A stretch of DNA of 64,000 bases from Tilletia caries (Eukaryota > Basidiomycota > Exobasidiomycetes > Tilletiales > Tilletiaceae). A program made the position numbers and the translations under genes. Of this stretch, positions 50,493 to 61,023 are shown one piece after another; the first letter of the stretch is position 1; every line of letters starts with the position of its first letter. The notes beneath the pieces are model-generated. The model saw only the letters and a program-made list of their open reading frames with translations, was not told the origin of the DNA and did no database searches. The DNA lies in assembly GCA_032718865.1 (NCBI GenBank), contig JALUTQ010000041.1:496001-560000 (forward strand), given 5' to 3'.

Positions 50493-50649
50493 GGGTGGGA
50501 GATGTCAGAAAACAAATAAAGAACGTCAGTCCGCTCTGAGAAGAAAGAACATTGCGAAGGGCGTGCAACTTCATCTCATCTTGGAGACGCTTGGCTGGCA
50601 GTCGTGGTTCCTCTTGCAATTTCGTTCTGATGGACCATGTACCGGTTTC

Positions 50650-50713
50650 TATGGAACGCCGTTTTCACCACCTTCGCTTTTCCCTTTTCCCTTTTCGCTT
50701 TTCCCTTTTCGCT
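50650..50713 (+). repeat. Left terminal inverted repeat of the 9.1-kb element
   Basis: Tip TATGGAACGCCGTTTTCACC followed by TTTTC[C/G]C heptads. It is the inverse of 59668-59746 apart from two fewer heptads and one T/C change. Confidence 0.88.
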
Positions 50714-50837
50714 GCTTCAGCTTCAGCTCAGTTGGAATCTCCCGGGCCCCTCGGAACGGAGAGGAACGGGACTCAGTCAAGAGGTTTCCGACGCCAAAGG
50801 GAGTGTAGATTCATCGGGGATTAGGTAGTCAGTCGCA

Positions 50838-50956
50838 CGGGGGTGCGCGAGCACCGTGCGAGGACCCCGCACACTGACTCCGTGCGAGGTCTGCGCGCCG
50901 CAGCGTTCGTGCGGTGGTCGCGCACCCCCGCGCGAGCCCTGGGGCGCGCGCAGACC
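50838..50956. repeat. GC-rich nested inverted repeats (cruciform)
   Basis: CGGGGGTGCGCGAGCACC (about 50838-50855) is inverted as GGTGGTCGCGCACCCCCG (about 50913-50930), and GGTCTGCGCGC (50888-50898) is inverted as GCGCGCAGACC (50946-50956). The block is far richer in CG than its surroundings and sits ~200 bp inside the left end of the transposon. Confidence 0.7.
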
Positions 50957-51506
50957 GCGCGCAGGGCTCACCCATACCCCTTCTTCCATTGCAGCTCGCA
51001 CTCAGGCCTCGCACACAAGTCAGTAATGAACGAATGAATGAATGAATCAGATTCTATTCAATGTCAACTATGTATTGAGGGAAGAGATGCAACCACAGTC
51101 TATGGAGTATGGACTGGGGTGCTGGGTGGCGGGTGCATGATCGCATCAGAGTAAGTCGAGCGGAAAAAAAGGGAGCCGAGTCGAACAGGGATACCAGCCG
51201 AGCGTGCCGCAAATATGGTCGATGGAACATGCTGTGGAGTATGGCCTGTGTGCTGTGGGTGAGGGTTGAGGGGCTTGAGGGCTTGCCTCAAGTCATGGAG
51301 AAGACGCAACAGCGATGGCCCATGTCTGTCGGCTGTCCCGGGTCCACGTCCACGCCCACCTGTAACTGCTGAAGATGAAAATGACAGTCAGAGCCCAGAC
51401 TCCAGATTGAAGAGTTGCTACAGACAAACAGGATTCGATCAACACTGGTGCATCTGAGCCCTGACTCCTAAGGGAAATTCAGCATTCAGTCAGATTTTGA
51501 AAGAGG

Positions 51507-52035
51507 TCAGCGAGCAAGCACAAACGCGGGCACAATCTGCAGGTCTCCAATATCAAGAGCAGCTGCTGTCTGCTGAGCCCTGAGGTATGCAATCCGTTGG
51601 CCGTTGCAGTACTGTATCAAATCATGGTCACAGCGGCGAAGATAGAAAGAGAGAGGGTCAACGGTGATTACGGTTTGTGAAGAGAAAACAGTCAGCGAGT
51701 GCAGAGTGTAGCGTGCAGAGTGTTGCTGTCAAGAACTGAAAAGTGAGAAAAGGGCTGGAAACTCGAAGGAAGAGTTGAGAACGGGGCAGGAGGAAAGGGT
51801 TGGGGGAGTGTTGGACGTGTCACTTCACGACTCTTTCGTTTTCGTAGCACATACCTCCTCTCAGCAAATTGTCGTTCCCAATGCATTCCCAGGTTCCCAA
51901 CACCCGGACACGTAAGGTTGTAAGAATCTGGTAATCAGCAACAGAAACAGGAAAGGAGAGGATGTGAGTGAACGAGAATCTCAGCGTGAGCTCTGCGGGA
52001 GGGTTAACAGACAGCTCAGCGAGGCACTGTCGAGA
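51507..52035 (-). CDS. Unrecognised protein inside the 9.1-kb element (C-terminal two exons)
   Basis: Exon 52035-51829 follows a TACTAAC branch point and a CTCAAG acceptor: SRQCLAELSVNPPAELTLRF, then FTHILSFPVSVADYQILTTL, then VLGTWECIGNDNLLRGGMCY. A GTGAAG donor joins it in phase 0 to exon 51725-51507: QQHSARYTLHSLTVFSSQTV, ITVDPLSFYLRRCDHDLIQY, IAYLRAQQTAAALDIGDLQI, ending VPAFVLAR. The text is protein-like with no low complexity. An alternative donor GGAG|GTATGT would break the frame. The 5' exons are not resolved (a candidate LLLFLVVRVRPE segment lies at about 52115-52165). No family is recognised. Confidence 0.5.
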
Positions 52036-52352
52036 CTTGAGCACAAAGGAAAGGTGATGGTTAGCCAGTCAGTTAGTAGCCAAGAGCTATCTGCAAAATC
52101 AATCAATGAATCATAAATCAATGCAACCTCAGGTCGGACGCGAACGACGAGGAACAGAAGAAGGTTAGCACTCAGCAGGACGCATGCAGTACAGCGGTAG
52201 ACTCCAGCGGTTCACCGTTCAACCTACGGCATCGAAGCTGATTACGGTGTGATCTGCGGGGCCAGAAAGAACAAAAGGAAAATCAGCCGGTGGGTGGAGC
52301 TCAGTAAGCACTCAGCGATGGTCGATGGACGAGAGTGTGATGTGTATGTAGA

Positions 52353-52361
52353 AGTCCTTAT
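52353..52361 (+). promoter_or_regulatory. TATA-box-like element
   Basis: TTATAAAGG lies about 110 bp upstream of the ATG at 52467, between two divergent gene models inside the element. Confidence 0.5.
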
Positions 52362-52466
52362 AAAGGAACCGCTCTCACCTGATGCCCCCTTTACCAAATC
52401 CCCACTCTCTTGCTCCCAAGACCCAATCCCTCACCTGCTCGCCTCTCTGGCTCAATCACAGACACA

Positions 52467-52870
52467 ATGAGTCAGAAAGGAGTGGCGCGCAAAGGTACGT
52501 TCCATAGATCATAGGGTAAACTCACCAAAAGTGTTAGTGGCCTGTGCTGATTATTATTTTTGCGACTGTGTCCTGTGAAGGTGGACGAGGAAGAAGAGGC
52601 GGTAAGCAAGTTGCTGCTGCTGGGCGCCGCGGTGCCGACCTGGAACCTGCTTCCACTGCCGCTGGCGCTGCCGGTGTCGCGCCTACCCGAATCGAAACGA
52701 GCGCGCCTGGTGCGTCTGGTGCGCCTGGTGCTGCTGGTGCGCCCGATGCTGCTGGTGACGCTCGTGCTGCTGGTGCGCCTGGGGCCTCTGGTGCTGCTGG
52801 TGCGCCTGATGCGCCTGATGCGGCTGGTGCGGCTGGTGCTGCTGGCGAGAACGGCAAAGTAATGAAGTAG
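52467..52870 (+). CDS. Gly-Ala-x repeat protein inside the 9.1-kb element (105 aa, 2 exons)
   Basis: Exons 52467-52494 and 52581-52870 (GTACGT donor, GTGAAG acceptor). The product begins MSQKGVARKGGRGRRGGKQV, a basic RG-rich head, and then runs in three-residue steps (GAS GAP GAA GAP DAA GDA RAA ...), ending GENGKVMK. The regular Gly every third residue recalls collagen-like sequence, but Pro is sparse. The repeat at DNA level (GCTGCTGGTGCGCCT units) leaves long frames open on the other strand as well, so the coding strand is inferred from the spliced start, TATA box and basic head. Confidence 0.45.
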
Positions 52871-53017
52871 GGACGTCAGTGCCAGTTGTGGACCCATCGG
52901 AAGCACACATCAGAGTCTTCAAGCACATGGGTCGGTCTGGTGCCCGGTACAAGTGTGTTTTTCGGTTACTAGAGGCTTGCCGCTTGGACATGAGAGAAGA
53001 GGGGATGGAGAACGCAG

Positions 53018-53826
53018 TCATCGATCATCAGTCATAGGCGGGTCACCTGCGTCTTTGCTGACTAGGGGGGGTGTGAGGAATGTCCTGCGGGTACCATAAT
53101 CTAACCTGCCGCAGATGCGGTGGTAGTTAAGCATAGCCTCGGCGTGGTGGTCGACGGGCTGAAAGGTGCGAATGGTTTTTATTGAGCTGATGACGATCTG
53201 CGCCAACCTTTAGCCTGTGGTGCACGTCGATCAGGGTTCGACAATTGGATAAATTATGATTATTGTCAGCCTCGTCCCAATTTGAAAGTCAGAGGACTTA
53301 GATGGTTAACTTACGAGAGAGACTTGGTGTATGCTGCCCTTCGGTTGACAGATGGGCCGACTTCGTTGTCTGGAACCACAAACCCCTCCAGGTGCTGTTT
53401 CTGAGGCCGCCTGAGTCGAGGCTTGATGCGCACCTCGGATCCGTCGGGCGCTTCAACCGCTGCTTCCGCCTCCACATATTTTTTGGCAAGAAGCCGGGCC
53501 TGTTTAACCTCCTCTCGCTGCGCCGCCCGAAGCGCCTTTTGCTGGGCTTCGATCCGTTTGCTACGTAGCTCGTTGAGTGCCGTATGTCGTCGGTCGTTGA
53601 GTTGTCCGCGCCGATTGCGGAGCCGTAACATCTTGCGCTTTGGGCCACATGGTCGCCGATCCAAGCGTGATTCAGGCTGAACCCACGTGTGTGCTGCTTC
53701 CGTGACCGTTCCGGTTGACTGGGCTGCCGTTTCCGCTGCTGCCGCCGCCGCTGCCGTCGCTGCTGCTGCTGCTTTCTTTGCCGTCGCCGCTTGCTCACGC
53801 AGACGCTGCCGTCTTTCTTTCCGCAT
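53018..53826 (-). CDS. Unrecognised basic/coiled protein inside the 9.1-kb element (233 aa, 2 exons)
   Basis: Exons (minus): 53826-53315 and 53207-53018 (GTAAGT donor, AAAG acceptor). It starts MRKERRQRLREQAATAKKAA with a poly-Ala run, continues QLNDRRHTALNELRSKRIEA, then QREEVKQARLLAKKYVEAEA (helical, charged), then HLEGFVVPDNEVGPSVNRRA, and after splicing AQIVISSIKTIRTFQPVDHH and AEAMLNYHRICGRLDYGTRR. The N-terminal half is probably a long basic helix able to bind nucleic acid. No named domain. Confidence 0.45.
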
Positions 53827-55702
53827 TGTTTCAACTTGGGCGCAGGTTTGGACTGATGTTCACCTATCACATCGGACATCCAATCCATATACATATATTC
53901 CGGCGTAGGTTCCGCTGCCCGATCAGCCCCCGGCGCTCATCGCACTGAGAAGTGAGAACAGTCCATACTCCATAGGGCACGGGCTCCCGCATTTCGGTGA
54001 CCGGAACATATGAGGCTTGATACATACACTGGTCCGCCGTCCGACGGATTGATGAGGGGGACTTACGCGGTTTCGCGGTTACGCCCGCGTCGCACCTCCT
54101 GAGTTCTGATTTTACATACTCTGTTTCAATAATGAATTAGACTACTGTGAACTGTAGTCTTCCCCGGTCAGCCCTACCAGCTGTTGCGATGCCATTTGGG
54201 CTTTGGCAAGCGCCAGCGACTGCACGGCTGGTACGCTGGTTACAGGCACCAAAACAGGGGTTATCGTCTGAAGCTGGCCAATGCGAAATAACAAATGAGG
54301 CATGGGTTCATGGGTGAAGCCCGAACGACGACCGCTTGTCACCTCACTGGTGTGGTGACTCAGTAAGTCTCAGTGTGTTAACTTTCAGCCGGCAGCCCCG
54401 CGTAAAGATCTCATTATTCGCATCTTCTCGTTTGACCGCCGACGTGACAGCCGACGTGAGGCCGCGCCCCGCGTCGGCCGGCCGTGTGGCGTGATTAACA
54501 ATTCGCATATTCAAGTTTCAGGAACCAGGGTTTTCATTTTTCTAAGCTAAGGCGCCCGAATGGCCAGGCCAAGCCACACTTCTTCGAAGGCTGACGCCAA
54601 CTGGCCGTGCGGCGTGCCTCCTTCCGGTAGAAGTGTATCACTGTGCTCATCTGTGCGGATTGACGCCTGTCGGTGTGCAATAATGTATAATGGTGGCTGC
54701 CAGCTACCCGCTTCTGTCTCTAAATTAATTGTCTCATCTATATTGCAAAGCACTCTAGTTTATTGCGCCTCAGTTCCTGAAACGCTACATATGGAGACCG
54801 ATCACCGAGGTCCGAGACTCGAGAGAGTGCAAGACCGCATTCTAATGAGGTGAAGCAACCAGCTCAACCTTCTGCCTTCGACAGTGACCGATGATCAGCG
54901 ATCAGCGACTGCTGAGTTAATATAGTCATCCTCGAGGCCCGACCTCCGAGAGTCCGAGCCCGATAATCGACCGAACAGAAATCAGGGTCCAGCCAAACAT
55001 TCTTTTTTTAATGTAACTCAATAACATTCTTCCGCTCGTCATCGCCTCGCTACATCCGTTCCGGCTTTCCGGGTCTCTTGCCTTTTTTTCATGTACCTTA
55101 TTCAAGGAATGCATCACGCAGGTCGCAGACGAAGAACAAGGTCGTATATGTGGCACTTTTCCTTCTTCCAGCCCGTGCTCTGAAGCACCCCCTCCCCCTC
55201 TAGTTTCCTCTCTTCTACCATCTCCTCTGAGCTCTGCCCTTTCACCTCTTACCTTCCTCTACCTCCGACGCCTTCTGCCACACTCACACTACCGGCCATA
55301 CTCGCCTCTCCTCTCCATCGGCTCTCTGCGCGTATCTTCTCCTCTCCTCTCCTCCTACCTCGCCGCTTCGGCTCGTCAACGTCGCGGCACTCCTCGTCGC
55401 CGCTAGTCTTGAGCTGTGTGGACCATCTAGCGCATTGTCCGTCTGGCGCTCTTTGGGCTCAGGCCTGTGATACTCGCTTCTTTTGGTCCCCTCTCGAGCA
55501 GTGCGGTGGCACCTGTGCAACGACGTCGGCGAGTTCGGTGCGACAAGACTCGAGGACGATCGGACTGCGCGAACTACATTGCTGTAAGTTACTTCCACAC
55601 CCCAATGCTCTCGCTGCGGTCTTGGCCCCTTGCTGACATGCGCTACTCTCTTCCTTGTCTCGTATCTTCGTAGTATTTTGGCACGATCAGGCGCTTGTTA
55701 TC
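53827..55702. other. Interior of the 9.1-kb element with possible minor exons
   Basis: Two minus-strand segments read like protein but are not linked into a gene: 54751-54547 (ETEAGSWQPPLYIIAHRQAS, ending FEEVWLGLAIRAP and stop) and 54342-54142 (HEPMPHLLFRIGQLQTITPV, ending LTGEDYSSQ and stop). The last 500 bases are a CT-rich leader (TCCTCTCCTC runs near 55200-55370) for the plus-strand gene at 55703. Confidence 0.35.
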
Positions 55703-57698
55703 ATGGATACGCGCAGCACACAGCCTGCGTCCAGCGCGGCTGGTGATTCGACAGGGCAGCACAGCAACAACGTGAGTTCATTCCATCCATTCTTACCGTC
55801 GCAGACGTCCATGTTGATCGTATGACTGACATCTGTATTCTTTTGGATAGGATATCAACGCCACGCTCGCGGCAATTCTCAAGCAGGTTAACCACGTTGG
55901 TACCAACGTGGATGATGTCTCCGGCAAGCTCGGCAAGGTCACCGAGCGACTTCAGTTGCTGGAAGCCCACTCAGGTCTCTATGGCCAGTCCACAGCTCCT
56001 CGGCCCTCTGACAACGGCAGTACTACTAGTGAGTAGCTCCTGCTTCGGTCCAGAAGAGCCTGACATAACCAGTTACTGATTCACTTTGCTCTTCCTCAGC
56101 TCCAGTCCAGTCACAGCCAGTCCGTGGATCGATGTTTGCGGGACCGGGACCTTCGACGTCCTACGCCTCAGGTCTGCCGCAGCATTCATTCCCGGCCGCA
56201 GCGCCTACGACGAGCGCCGGCATCCCCGATATGCGCTTCCAGTCCACGTCCTCGGGAGGCACTGCGGACGACATCGAATTCCAAATGCTCCGAATGAGCT
56301 CGCCAGCCACGTCGACCTCGCAGCCGTCTCAGCACTCTCAAGGTCCAGGCCACTTCGCAAGCAGGGGGTTTCCTTCTGTCCGGCATCCGTCTTACGGGCA
56401 GCTTCGACCTTCACCGGCAACAGCAACCAGCTTAGCGGCAAGACACGTGACAAGGCACGGCAAGCTGATGGCAATCTCAAGGGGCACCGGCGCAGGTTCG
56501 AAGTCGGAACAAGGATCCTCGGGTCGAACAGCACCAGTTCAACCGATTGTCTTCAAGAAACGCAAGGGCGACCAGAGCAGCTCGGGTATCGTCCTCCTCA
56601 AGGACCGTCGGCTTCTTGACGAGAACCTGCGCATGGGCAAAGCCGGAAAGCAATTCGAAACCCTGGTCGACAAGCATCGGCTTCGGATCTGGCCGGTCAT
56701 TCCAAAGACTGCGGACGCTAAGGAAGTGTTCAGCATCATCGTGTCAGAGTTCGAAGCTCACGGACATCGACTGTGCACTGAAGGTCAATGCGGATACGAG
56801 TGAGTACTAACAACCTCACTTCTCTCGCTACATGCTTGAGCTCGCATTAACTTACGCATACATCTCTTAACTTAGATTTGCGTGTCTCAGCACCTCCGAC
56901 CTCAAGTTTCGCACGCTTGGGAGCGACGAGCAGCATGCCGTCGACTTCATCAACGCTCAAAGCCTTCAGGCTAAGTTCACCGGCCGCGAATGCTTCATCG
57001 TTGTCAAGAGCGACCTCAAGGCAGAAATCTACGACAATCTTCTGTCGAAGATCTCCAAGCGCCACCGCCACGAGGACGAGTACGACTCCAACATCAGTGC
57101 CATGAGCGGCGAAGATTCCGATAGTCGATCAGCGCAGGACAAGGAGTTCGACCAGTGTTACCGCTGTAGGAACACCTTTCCTACGTCCGTTCTGGCAGCT
57201 CATGAAGTGGGTTGTCGGCCGAAGAAGGTGAGTCTCATGTTACGTCTGGGATGTTGGATAGCTGAGCCAGCGAATGTTCCGATGAGCGTGGCTAACATGA
57301 TAGCCTTCCTTTCCTTAACACAGAAACGGTGCGAATACAAGTACGTCAACCACATCGACGACAGCGACATTGAGCTCGTGATGCCAAAGACGGAACAAGT
57401 AGAGGATGACCCCCTCGACGGGCCTTTCTTCGAGTCGGACGATGACCTTGACGGCAACGCAAACGACGGCGACCGTACCATCTCGAGCGACAACACCAAG
57501 GGCGGCGGCGGCACTACCAGTTCCAAGAGCATTGCCCAGTCTGACGTCAAGATCATCGATAATTCAGTCAACGCTTCCGACGGCTCATCTTTGACATCTC
57601 TTCAACCAGAAGATGCCAGCGACGATACCGCGCATCAACGACAGTCTCCTGACCACTCGCAACGCAAGGATCGTTCCGTTCCGAGGCGTGCATGGTGA
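55703..57698 (+). CDS. C2HC zinc-finger-like protein of unknown function inside the 9.1-kb element (557 aa, 5 exons)
   Basis: Exons 55703-55771, 55851-56028, 56100-56799, 56876-57227 and 57324-57698, all in phase. A short helical segment (DINATLAAILKQVNHVGTNV, VSGKLGKVTERLQLLE) near residues 24-65 looks like a coiled coil. A disordered Ser/Pro-rich stretch follows, then a folded-looking region (VLLKDRRLLDENLRMGKAGK; FETLVDKHRLRIWPVIPKTA; FSIIVSEFEAHGHRLCTEGQ). The motif CYRCRNTFPTSVLAAHEVGC (C-x2-C-x12-H-x4-C) is a likely zinc finger. The C-terminus is acidic. Its stop is 72 bp from the convergent stop of the integrase gene, an arrangement fitting one element. No family is recognised. Confidence 0.65.
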
Positions 57699-57769
57699 GT
57701 ATCTGTATGAGTCTCAGCTTTTGGCTGGCGATGCTAGATGCTAACAAATCTGTCTTGTGTTTGTGTGAT

Positions 57770-59576
57770 CTACAACACCTCGTTGATGGCATCCAGCACA
57801 TCCAAGTAGGCACGCAGGCCGAAGTCTTCGGGAGGCGGGAACGACGGAGAAGGCAGCAGCTGCGATAACCCGTGTCGAGTCTCCTCCAGATTCAGAACCG
57901 GAGGAACGCGGTCTTCTATCCGGTCCACGTGGACGTGCGGGCCATCGTACTCATCCAAACCCCCCTCCCCAACAACATCATCGACGCCATAGTCTTCCGC
58001 ACCACCCATCTCCACGCCCGCCGCCTCCAGATCCTGCCTCTCCTCACGATCCATCAGCCCGAAATCGAATCCCCGACGTGCAGCATCCCAAGAACCTTTC
58101 CATCCCCACCAGACACCAGTACGATTCATAACCATATCAGTGAGTACCCCAAGCTGTGCTTCGACGTACAATTACGCGCATGGACTCACCCAAAGTGTAC
58201 ATCTGCTCTGGCGACAGGTTCCCCATTCCTTTAGTTCGAACCTTGTGGTGGTTCCACATTCCAACAAAGTGGTCGAGCGCGCCATTCAACTGCGGCAAGA
58301 AGACAAAGTGGAGCGCCCACAAGTGGATATCCGACTCGATATCCAGCACACCGCAGTCCTCAAGATATTCGAACCAAGACTTGTACTTGGACACCGTCCA
58401 CTTGCGGAGGTCCACCCAGAGACGCTCGATCCTTTGATTGTGAGTAGAGGTGCCTTGGATGAAAGAGCCCCGGTCGAGACCTGAACACAATCTGATGAGC
58501 TTTCCTTTAACCATCGCAGAGAACAACCCGAATCTCGACACCACTCACCTCTTTTCGTCTCCATCAACCTCTTAACCCCCAAGTTCTCTCCTCCATGATC
58601 TCCTCTGACTCGACTCGGCCACCCTCGTTTTTCCACGGCCTGCAAGAACAGCTCCGACACTGTCTCCGCTCGGTTGTTGCCGGATGCTTGTAGAAAGGTA
58701 ACTAGTCTGCTCTTGCCATCGATGGCACCGTGAATGACAATCTTCCACCTTATCAGCTTGTGATGCCCGTCTATGTGCCACAGGGAGTTGACGAAGGGCA
58801 CATAGTATTCCCGACGCTTGAGATACTTGGTCCATCGAGAAGTAACCCCGATCGGGTCGAGGGCCTTGATCGCAGTCCTCAACTTCGACCTGCTGACCCG
58901 GATGCCAAGACTGTTTAAGGCACCCATCGTTCCTCGCTCGCCAACCGTGTCGCTGTGCATGCTGCGTAATTTTACAAGATGCTAAAATAGTAGATGAAGA
59001 CAGTCGCGATTTGTGAGAATGTTGAGGATGTGACGTTCATAGTTCAAGGGAATAGGGGCACGGACTGACCTCGATCAGAGCTTGCTCGTCAATGGAAGTG
59101 TTCCACTTCTCGATGCCCATCTCTTTGCGACGGCGATATATCGTTCCAGGAGAGCAGTCCAACATGATGGCGATGTCGGCATCCCGGAAACCCAGCTCTA
59201 CAAGCTCCAGCAAGAGCTCGCCGGGGATGCTGAGTTTCCACTGACCAGAGTCCGCCTTGACCCACTCTTGCACGCTAGACATGGAACTAGGATCTGAGGT
59301 TCCGGCAGACGTTTGTTGCTGTAAAGAGGACAGCTGCTGAGCCAAGTCTTGAAGTGGAACCCACAAGCTGTCAAAAATTAGAGGATGGAGACGAGGGGAC
59401 AAGTAGCGAAGAGACGTGGACAGCTCCTCAATGGTCAACTCATAGATGAGAAGCATATCGCTGTTGACAGGAGAGGTGGTCTGAGAAAGGGAGTGGGAAA
59501 TGGGAGAGGTAGCCCGCGAAATGTCTTCACGGAGAGCCGTAACCTCTTCGACGGTGAGGAGTGAAACCTCCGTCAT
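57770..59576 (-). CDS. HTH plus rve-type (DDE) integrase of the 9.1-kb element
   Basis: Exons (minus): 59576-59070, 58981-58549, 58480-58190, and a last segment 58158-57770. The N-terminus has a helix-turn-helix (LLLELVELGFRDADIAIMLD, CSPGTIYRRRKEMG). The core reads NSLWHIDGHHKLIRWKIVIH (first Asp), GWPSRVRGDHGGENLGVKRL (second Asp) and GTSTHNQRIERLWVDLRKW (Glu). The last two acidic residues are 34 apart, the DD35E spacing, joined correctly only after splicing. The tail has WALHFVFLPQLNGALDHFVG and SPEQMY. The final junction needs an intron of only 31 nt (58189-58159) or a frameshift; without it the protein ends RVIVRRSTAWGTH. Similar unnamed integrase-core proteins are frequent in basidiomycetes. 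Confidence 0.8.
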
Positions 59577-59667
59577 GGCAGAAACCAGAATGCAGACTGT
59601 GGTGGACGGTGGGAAGGATGTACATACGATGAATTATAGAGCGCTGATGGAATTGGAAATATTAAAG

Positions 59668-59746
59668 CAGCGAAAAGCGAAAAGCGAGAAGGGAAAAGCG
59701 AAAAGGGAAAAGGGAAAAGCGAAGGTGGTGAAAACGGCGTTCCATA
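59668..59746 (-). repeat. Right terminal inverted repeat of the 9.1-kb element
   Basis: Inverse copy of 50650-50713 with seven heptads. Flanked outside by GGTTTC (59747-59752), identical to 50644-50649. Confidence 0.88.
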
Positions 59747-59752
59747 GGTTTC

Positions 59753-61023
59753 GGACGCACGGACGATCCGTCGGCTGCGCCCAAGTCGGACAGTGGGGAG
59801 AGTCGACGGCGGTACAATATCGGAGCCAGTTGACTCGATGGTGATTGCTGGCAACACGCATCGAGCAACGCTCCGCCTCATTCTCATTTCGAGGCCCTGC
59901 AAATTTCCTTCCTTCGCAGCAGGAAGCTCGCAGGACTGGACCACCATCTTCTCCCCCTTTGCACTCTCACCGCTCGTCGCTTTCCTACTCACTCTCGAGT
60001 GTGTACGAACGTTCGTTGCCTTCTCTTCAGTCTCGTTGCTTTCTTTTTCTTTCCCCACCCTCCGCACCCTCTTCTGGTTCTCGCATCTCGTTTCGTTTCT
60101 CAGAACATTTCCTCTTTCCTCTCCGCGTTTCACTCAACGCTTTTCTCGATGCTCCACTCTCTCCATTGTCCTTTCTTCTGGCGCCGGCTTGTAGTACGTT
60201 TCCCATTCGGTCCTGCATCGCTCAGTGGTCCCGCCCGCCCAGGGCGACCCACGATCGCACTCGGCACGAACGTAATCGAGCCCGCGCCCACCCACCTGGG
60301 GTGGGTCTTTCCCATGTTCCTTCATGGTTGCTATCAGACTGAAGCCACCTCGGAGACTGCGGGTGTGCAGCTGGGAACAGCCGACAAGGAAAATCAGAAT
60401 CTTCTCTCGCAAGATATGTGATGTAAGTACGTCAGCGCCTTGCTCTCTCAGTTCGTACGTTTGTCTCTGTATGGTAATGCCCTGCGCACAGCGTGTACCT
60501 CAGGGTTGGGTCTGAGCACGGAAGTGCTCGCACGTCGTTGCAGTCGGGGCCCGGAGCGTACCCCATTGCGATAGCCCGCTGGGCGCCGACTGCCACTATG
60601 TGAACCCCCCTCAGGCGCGCCCTGTGGGCGAAAGCATCCGATGCCAAAAGCTGGTGCCGGGAGAACTGAAGTCTGAATCTGAAGAACAATGGAAGAGTGG
60701 TGAGATTAAATGTGGACTGCAGATCTGTGGACCCGAGAGAACGGAGAAGACCTGCGCCAGTGATTGGAAGCTAAAAAGAGAACTGCCAAAGATGATGCAC
60801 ATCGACATGCCTGATGTTGGGCAGTGCGCATGCGGACGCCACGACAACGACCTGTGAGGACGGGAGTCGGGAAGGGAAAAAGATGACCGTATTGGAAACT
60901 GTTTGACGGGGATGAAGAACAGAAGCATAAGTATGCCGCGCTGATGAGCACGATGGGGTGTGAGTGTGTGACCAAACACATACAGCCTAATACGGACCAG
61001 CGTGGGTGCCGGACCTGCCGGGC
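59753..61023. other. Region between the 9.1-kb element and DIRS element 2
   Basis: CT-rich leader-like sequence at about 59940-60180 resembles a 5' UTR, but the plus-strand frame at 59999-60421 has no recognisable domain. The part from about 60600 is probably the untranslated end of DIRS element 2; its terminal repeats were not found. Confidence 0.35.

What the first reader, a model, noticed from the sequence alone, without database searches (positions are those of the whole stretch)
50644..59752. Complete 9.1-kb integrase transposon with cargo genes, possibly a new superfamily
Seen directly: inverted termini with an identical 23-bp tip, heptad subterminal arrays, a perfect 6-bp flanking duplication GGTTTC, and no similarity outside. 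Inside, right next to one terminus, is a spliced gene with a helix-turn-helix and a full D,D-34-E catalytic set. Known families with rve-like integrases in DNA transposons are Polinton/Maverick (6-bp TSD, 15-20 kb, PolB, ATPase, protease) and Ginger (4-bp TSD). This one has the 6-bp TSD but a far smaller size and none of the Polinton replication or packaging genes I can recognise. Instead it has at least four unknown spliced genes. The open integrase and intact TSD suggest recent mobility.
Basis: partly seen in the sequence, partly recalled or inferred. Interest (0 to 1): 0.92.

Follow-up and report, generated by a model that had tools for sequence, protein, structure and literature searches.

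The report
IS3EU transposon with captured gene fragment
A complete jumping DNA element in a wheat bunt fungus belongs to a known transposon superfamily (IS3EU) rather than a new one, but it carries an unfamiliar zinc-finger partner gene and a recently copied piece of another gene from the same genome.

Summary
The element spans 50650-59746 (9,097 bp), with 64-bp inverted termini and a perfect 6-bp duplication, GGTTTC. It is one copy of a multi-copy family: 10 of 13 distinct sites have perfect 6-bp duplications, and other copies of the repeat it landed in act as empty sites.

"New superfamily" is not supported. Termini TATGG..CCATA, 6-bp duplications and a DD34E rva_4 transposase fit IS3EU as published (PMC12730594, PMC10045372; passages). 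Cargo-bearing IS3EU is known: Styx of Zymoseptoria (PMC10853768, passages) and TET/JBP-carrying families.

Of the "at least four unknown spliced genes", one is supported. Gene B lies tail-to-tail with the transposase, shows purifying selection in 3 of 3 tests and has relatives near other IS3EU transposases. It has a CX2CX11HX3C finger; some relatives add a PHD-like finger.

Newest part: the block 50812-52846 is about 98% identical to a locus on contig C21, with matching borders, and occurs in copies at four sites. Capture is the best reading.

The parts
50644..50649 (.). left copy of the 6-bp target site duplication GGTTTC
59747..59752 (.). right copy of the target site duplication GGTTTC
50650..50713 (+). 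left terminal inverted repeat (TATGGAACGCCG...), with heptads from 50678
59683..59746 (-). right terminal inverted repeat; heptads run from 59670
50812..52846 (+). block A: segment about 98% identical to C21:815836-817875, read as captured; present in copies C36, C23a, C3 and (left part) C23b, replaced by another block in C39 and C5
   Evidence: the right border lies in a repetitive stretch
52467..52870 (+). truncated gene D: start and Gly/Ala-rich beginning of a longer gene still present at C21; stops just beyond the right border of block A
53311..53826 (-). ORF 'gene C', 171 codons; no evidence of purifying selection, broken frames in some copies; not supported as a gene
55703..57698 (+). 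gene B, 5 exons (55703-55771, 55851-56028, 56100-56799, 56876-57227, 57324-57698), 557 aa, CX2CX11HX3C finger
57770..59576 (-). transposase, 4 exons (59576-59070, 58981-58549, 58480-58190, 58095-57770), 518 aa, DD34E, Pfam rva_4
50638..50649 (+). first 12 bp of the dispersed repeat that the element interrupts
59753..60371 (+). rest of that repeat, as far as it matches the copy in L049

Best explanation
One copy of an IS3EU-superfamily DNA transposon family in Tilletia caries. Shown: paired TATGG..CCATA ends; 6-bp duplications at independent sites; a spliced DD34E rva_4 transposase resembling IS481/IS3 transposases; 2-kb relatives with the same tips and no transposase match. Inferred: the transposase binds the termini and inserts with a 6-bp stagger, and moves the 2-kb elements in trans. 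Shown: a second gene (B) in convergent orientation, with a deficit of nonsynonymous changes, and with relatives near other IS3EU transposases, some bearing a PHD-like finger. Inferred: gene B is a DNA- or chromatin-binding helper of transposition. Shown: a 2.04-kb segment like a C21 locus sits between fixed borders where other copies have a different block. Inferred: it was copied in during repair of a break inside an element and then moved with it.
For: Tips and duplications at 13 sites, 10 perfect. Paralogous empty sites: 18 of 40 matches span the junction at 89% or better, one read by letters. rva_4 E 2.3e-72; NCBIfam IS481 E 1.9e-9, IS3 E 6.4e-5. Published IS3EU features match. Gene B: selection; compact two-gene sister element L046 with its own duplication; profile match in L048, E 6.3e-6, score 49.3 against at most 18.9 in 40 shuffles. 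Block A: borders and C21 match; B-type sequence also left of the right border in the 92%-identical copy C27a (134 bp).
Against: No tree with reference IS3EU proteins could be built here. The IS481 and IS3 scores are far below NCBIfam's own cut-offs. Gene B has no Pfam match and no confident structure; our copy lacks the PHD finger; L056 and L057 show neither motif; in L048 Pfam gives no PHD match above cut-off. Copies lacking gene B are flanked by duplications, so they moved, perhaps in trans. Transposase dN/dS is low against C27a (0.29), C23a (0.30) and C39 (0.39) but 0.81-0.93 against C5, C23b and C3. C5 has no duplication and C3 a displaced one. The C21 locus could be a relative of the source rather than the source.
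Confidence: 0.87

Rival explanations
1. A new transposon superfamily.
For: Large size, orphan second gene.
Against: Ends, duplication length and transposase all fit IS3EU; cargo-bearing IS3EU is published.
Confidence: 0.03
2. A small or decayed Polinton/Maverick.
For: 6-bp duplication and an integrase-like core.
Against: No polymerase, ATPase, protease or capsid match in gene B, gene C, gene D's ORF or 10 further ORFs scanned with Pfam; transposase is rva_4, with rve below cut-off.
Confidence: 0.01
3. Gene B is a passenger without a role in transposition.
For: No function shown; C3, C23b and the 2-kb elements lack a full gene B and have moved.
Against: Same place and orientation beside transposases of other families; deficit of nonsynonymous changes. 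Mobility without it can be in trans.
Confidence: 0.3
4. Block A was not captured from a C21-like locus: C21 received it from the element, or block A is a separate mobile repeat that entered both.
For: The segment also occurs in part at C15 at 94%, and its first 200 bp at several further places.
Against: At C21 no IS3EU end was found and the gene D frame runs on about 170 codons beyond the border; in the element it is cut short; no own termini or duplication seen at the borders.
Confidence: 0.12

Closest known systems
Fungal IS3EU carrying TET/JBP (Kojima 2025, PMC12730594)
   Same: 6-bp duplication, TIR over 30 bp, TAYGG..CCRTA ends, a second gene opposite in orientation to the transposase
   Different: their second gene is an alpha-kinase with a TET/JBP gene between; here neither was found and the second gene is B
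Styx of Zymoseptoria (PMC10853768)
   Same: IS3EU-type DDD/E transposase, 6-bp duplication, 36-bp TIR, 7.9 kb, several genes including one with a CCHC motif; proposed to derive from a two-protein IS3EU
   Different: GATA and DUF3577 genes not seen here; whether its CCHC gene is related to gene B is untested
GingerRoot (PMC10045372)
   Same: 6-bp duplication, mostly TA..TA ends; one lineage with IS3EU
   Different: described from a clubmoss; no sequence comparison made here
Pack-type gene-capturing elements such as Pack-MULEs (recalled)
   Same: a gene fragment with sharp borders is duplicated between the termini and then mobilised
   Different: other transposase superfamilies; here the capturing element keeps its own transposase

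Membership tests
IS3EU | TA..TA termini (fungal: TAYGG..CCRTA) | tested here: met
   TATGG..CCATA in this copy
IS3EU | 6-bp target site duplication | tested here: met
   10 of 13 sites perfect, one 5 of 6, one displaced, one absent
IS3EU | TIR longer than 30 bp (fungal families) | tested here: met
   64 bp
IS3EU | DDD/E transposase similar to IS3/IS481 | tested here: met
   DD34E; NCBIfam IS481 E 1.9e-9, IS3 E 6.4e-5, both under the equivalog cut-offs
IS3EU | transposase groups with Repbase IS3EU in a tree | not testable with these tools
   no reference IS3EU proteins at hand
TET/JBP-carrying IS3EU | TET/JBP gene between transposase and alpha-kinase genes | tested here: not met
   gene B lies 71 bp from the transposase end and has no Pfam match; neither family found in the genome, but the controls rang nowhere, so the genome-wide absence is weak
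Styx | CCHC, GATA and DUF3577 genes beside the transposase | tested here: inconclusive
   a CX2CX11HX3C finger in gene B; no Pfam match to the others in the ORFs scanned; Styx proteins not compared
Polinton/Maverick | PolB, packaging ATPase, protease, capsid genes | tested here: not met
   no Pfam match in 15 element translations scanned: transposase, gene B, gene C, gene D's ORF, ten other ORFs and the right-end ORF outside the tip
Ginger | 4-bp (Ginger1) or 4-5-bp (Ginger2) duplication | tested here: not met
   6 bp; lengths from PMC10045372
Pack-type capture | captured segment with surviving genomic counterpart and no own termini | tested here: met
   direction inferred

The most novel reading that the evidence does not exclude
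Tilletia IS3EU elements encode a dedicated two-protein system: an IS3/IS481-type transposase plus a chromatin-reading partner (coiled coil, core domain, CCHC finger, in several families a PHD finger) that targets or licenses transposition; and these elements capture and spread gene fragments. The same partner may underlie the CCHC gene of Styx.
Probability: 0.3. Interest if true: 0.6.

Novelty: new variant of a known kind. Interest (0 to 1): 0.42.

Why it matters
It gives IS3EU a well-resolved family in one wheat-pathogen genome: full copies, internally deleted copies, 2-kb relatives without a transposase, a compact two-gene sister, paralogous empty sites, and an apparently captured segment whose counterpart is still in the genome. 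Two questions become testable: whether IS3EU transposition uses a chromatin-binding partner, and how transposons of this type gain extra DNA, which the passages I saw on Styx and the TET/JBP elements infer without a surviving source.

Tried and rejected
Polinton and Ginger membership. Gene C as a real gene: no deficit of nonsynonymous changes (4 comparisons), broken frames in C23a, C11a and C5. Gene D as intact cargo: a truncated copy of a longer multi-copy gene. Alpha-kinase and TET/JBP: no match in the genome, but the control genomes rang nowhere. Structure of gene B: mean pLDDT 46.7, pTM 0.27, so no fold search was run. Solved-structure relatives of the transposase by sequence: none at E up to 1. 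Copy C11b looked very divergent at protein level, but at DNA level it is 98% identical with many short gaps; C11a, C11b and C23a share flanks, so contig C11 looks like a fold-back duplicate of the C23 locus, and the three count as one site. C27b is a 2-kb relative with a Helitron-like insert, recognised by eye from its ORFs. Places C28 and C40 had no pair of tips and were dropped from the duplication count; single tips at C25:1140815 and C1:1748828 were not fetched. Empty sites were sought for the C36 site only.

Full report
WHERE IT IS. The window lies on contig C36 of a genome of 38,104,258 bases in 40 contigs. C36 is 1,798,756 bp and C7 2,689,501 bp, exactly the N50 and the largest contig reported for Tilletia caries TC1_MSG (PMC10684912, passages); that paper gives 38.18 Mb in 46 contigs, so a few contigs are missing here. 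Gene B is 99% identical to a T. caries protein. The repeat table in the passages names hobo-Activator, Tc1-IS630-Pogo and Tourist/Harbinger among DNA transposons, not IS3EU.

THE ELEMENT. 50650-59746, 9,097 bp. The inverted repeat pair is 65 nt at 98%, 64 of them the element's own. GGTTTC flanks it on both sides.

COPIES. The left terminal region has 57 matches in the genome. I fetched 16 places in 20 stretches; 14 have two recognisable tips, C40 has one and C28 none. With the window's copy that is 15 places; C11a, C11b and C23a share flanks and count once, leaving 13 sites. Ten have a perfect 6-bp duplication (C36, C23a, C23b, C7, C25, C32a, C32b, C39, C27a, C27b). C22 agrees at 5 of 6; C3 has its duplication displaced by six extra bases at the right end; C5 has none and a mutated left tip. 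Sizes run from 2.0 to 11.8 kb. C36 and C23a share the 9.1-kb structure; C3 and C23b are internally deleted; C22, C7, C25, C32a and C32b are about 2 kb with no transposase match at E 1e-4; C27b is a relative of these with a Helitron-like insert.

EMPTY SITES. I joined 300 bp of each flank with one GGTTTC and searched the genome. Of 40 matches, 2 are the site itself, 18 other places match at 89% or better over at least 150 bp across the junction, 14 more cross it at 79-89% over shorter lengths, and 6 do not reach it. In the one place I read by letters (L049), TGTACCGGTTTC runs straight into GGACGCACGG. The element landed 12 bp inside a dispersed repeat of about 630 bp. The left side of this test rests on those 12 bp.

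TRANSPOSASE. 518 aa, four exons, minus strand, D240 D297 E332, DD34E. Pfam rva_4 E 2.3e-72; rve and HTH_23 below their cut-offs. NCBIfam: IS481 E 1.9e-9, IS3 E 6.4e-5, below the equivalog cut-offs. 1,420 proteins at E 0.001 or better among 7,992 scored; in the 120 listed, named ones include Tilletia, Tremellales, Tulasnella, Naganishia, Sporobolomyces, Rhizophagus, a mussel and fishes (run with the uncorrected model). In this genome the core gives 90 exon-level matches. dN/dS between copies: 0.29 against C27a (28 nonsynonymous of 55 changes, p 2.6e-5; that copy is broken by inserts and stops), 0.30 against C23a, 0.39 against C39, but 0.81, 0.85 and 0.93 against C5, C23b and C3.

SUPERFAMILY. 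Published IS3EU has TA..TA termini, usually a 6-bp duplication, a Repbase entry since 2013, and one lineage with GingerRoot (PMC10045372, first part and passages). TET-carrying fungal IS3EU has a 6-bp duplication, TIRs over 30 bp, TAYGG..CCRTA ends and an alpha-kinase gene opposite to the transposase (PMC12730594, passages). The superfamily features I could test are met. Styx of Zymoseptoria is of IS3EU type, 7,927 bp, with four genes, one with a CCHC motif, and is proposed to derive from a two-protein IS3EU (PMC10853768, passages). A large IS3EU with extra genes is therefore a known kind.

GENE B. Five exons, 557 aa, 71 bp from the transposase end, tail to tail. No Pfam match. Only P0121 (T. 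caries) and P0122 (T. controversa) were found at E 0.01 or better among 7,994 candidates scored per search; the search needs shared five-residue words, so remote relatives can be missed. Nonsynonymous changes are fewer than expected: 3 of 11 against C39 (p 0.0008), 8 of 17 against C5 (p 0.008), 38 of 62 against C27a (p 0.005); these tests share copies and are not independent. Against C23a, not tested, the counts are 6 and 3 (dN/dS 0.61), and that copy has frame-breaking gaps. Of 48 matches in the genome, 44 lie in family copies and 4, at 27-36%, lie in three other loci: two 2-3 kb from another IS3EU transposase in the same tail-to-tail arrangement, the third about 13 kb from one. One of them (L046) is a compact 5,084-bp element with nearly the same tip and duplication AACGCC, in which the transposase and the gene B relative are the only genes I recognised; its near-identical partner L045 has no duplication. 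The L046 protein has a coiled-coil-like stretch, the core, the CX2CX11HX3C finger and a PHD finger (E 0.0012, below cut-off). In L048, beside a transposase 56% identical in the core, pieces of a gene in the same place and orientation match the gene B profile (score 49.3, E 6.3e-6; 40 shuffles at most 18.9) and carry both motifs, though Pfam calls no PHD there above cut-off. Of five loci not chosen for gene B (L048, L054-L057), three have a PHD-like motif in the expected orientation and two of these both motifs; the motifs of L048 and L055 are nearly identical, so these two may be one family; L056 and L057 have neither. Shuffled controls gave no PHD-like motif in 420 and 0.005 CCHC motifs per locus. 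Our own gene B lacks the PHD finger. A role in transposition is inference.

CAPTURED BLOCK. C36 agrees with C39 and C5 in the right 6,903 bp at 98%, and with C5 in bases 2-162; in between they differ. The borders are sharp..GTGTAGATT|CATCGGGG versus |GTACTCAG on the left..GCTGCTGGC|GAGAACGGC versus ..AACGTCTGA| on the right. The block of C36 matches C21:815836-817875 at 97.9%, starting and ending within 3 bp of these borders; the right end lies in a stretch of 9-bp repeats, so its exact place in C21 is uncertain. At C21 the gene D frame runs on about 170 codons beyond the border, in a gene with 22 matches in the genome; in the element it is cut short. Whether that gene family is a host family or belongs to another repeat is not known. 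C23a and C3 have the same two junctions, and C23b the same left one (its right border is deleted), at three further sites. C27a, 92% identical, shares 134 bp of the C39 type left of the right border, so the C39 type looks ancestral. By my reading three bases (ATT) are shared at the left border. Block A against C21: 16 mismatches in 1,951 aligned; A copies among themselves 5-12 in about 1,950-1,995; backbone C36 against C39: 71 in 6,903. One recent capture followed by transposition fits best; repair of an internal break with a C21-like template is inference.

GENES C AND D. Gene C shows no deficit of nonsynonymous changes in four comparisons (p 0.28 to 0.84) and was found only inside family copies (14 matches).

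IN PRINT. Searches for IS3EU with transposon, Basidiomycota, accessory/fungal terms and gene capture, for Tilletia with transposable elements, for Styx and for gene capture in fungi listed no paper whose title or abstract start describes IS3EU in Tilletia or a PHD-bearing IS3EU partner. Passages were seen of PMC12730594, PMC10045372, PMC10853768, PMC11645255 and PMC10684912; the other papers were seen as listings only, one search showed 20 of 32, and most subscription journals are missing from the library.

Noticed in passing
window 50810-51018: A GC-rich stretch of about 200 bp with inverted repeats inside block A recurs alone, whole or in part, on C1, C32, C40, C30 and C7.
   Followed up: no
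window 50638-50649 and 59753-60371: The element sits in a dispersed repeat of about 630 bp that starts TGTACCGGTTTC; at least 18 similar copies in the genome. Its nature is unknown.
   Followed up: partly
L013 (C3:2120390-2128070): This copy has six extra bases, CTCATA, between its right tip and the second copy of its duplication gacggg; they end like the element tip, as if an earlier flank had moved along.
   Followed up: no
contig C11 (L010, L011): Two inverted copies with the same flanks as the C23 locus, one with many short gaps: probably a fold-back assembly artefact.
   Followed up: partly
L025-L026 (C27:207700-219840): A 2-kb relative carries a long insert with Helitron-like Rep and helicase ORFs, recognised by eye.
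   Followed up: no
whole genome: 90 exon-level matches to the transposase core show several further IS3EU families at about 42-73% identity in this genome.
   Followed up: partly
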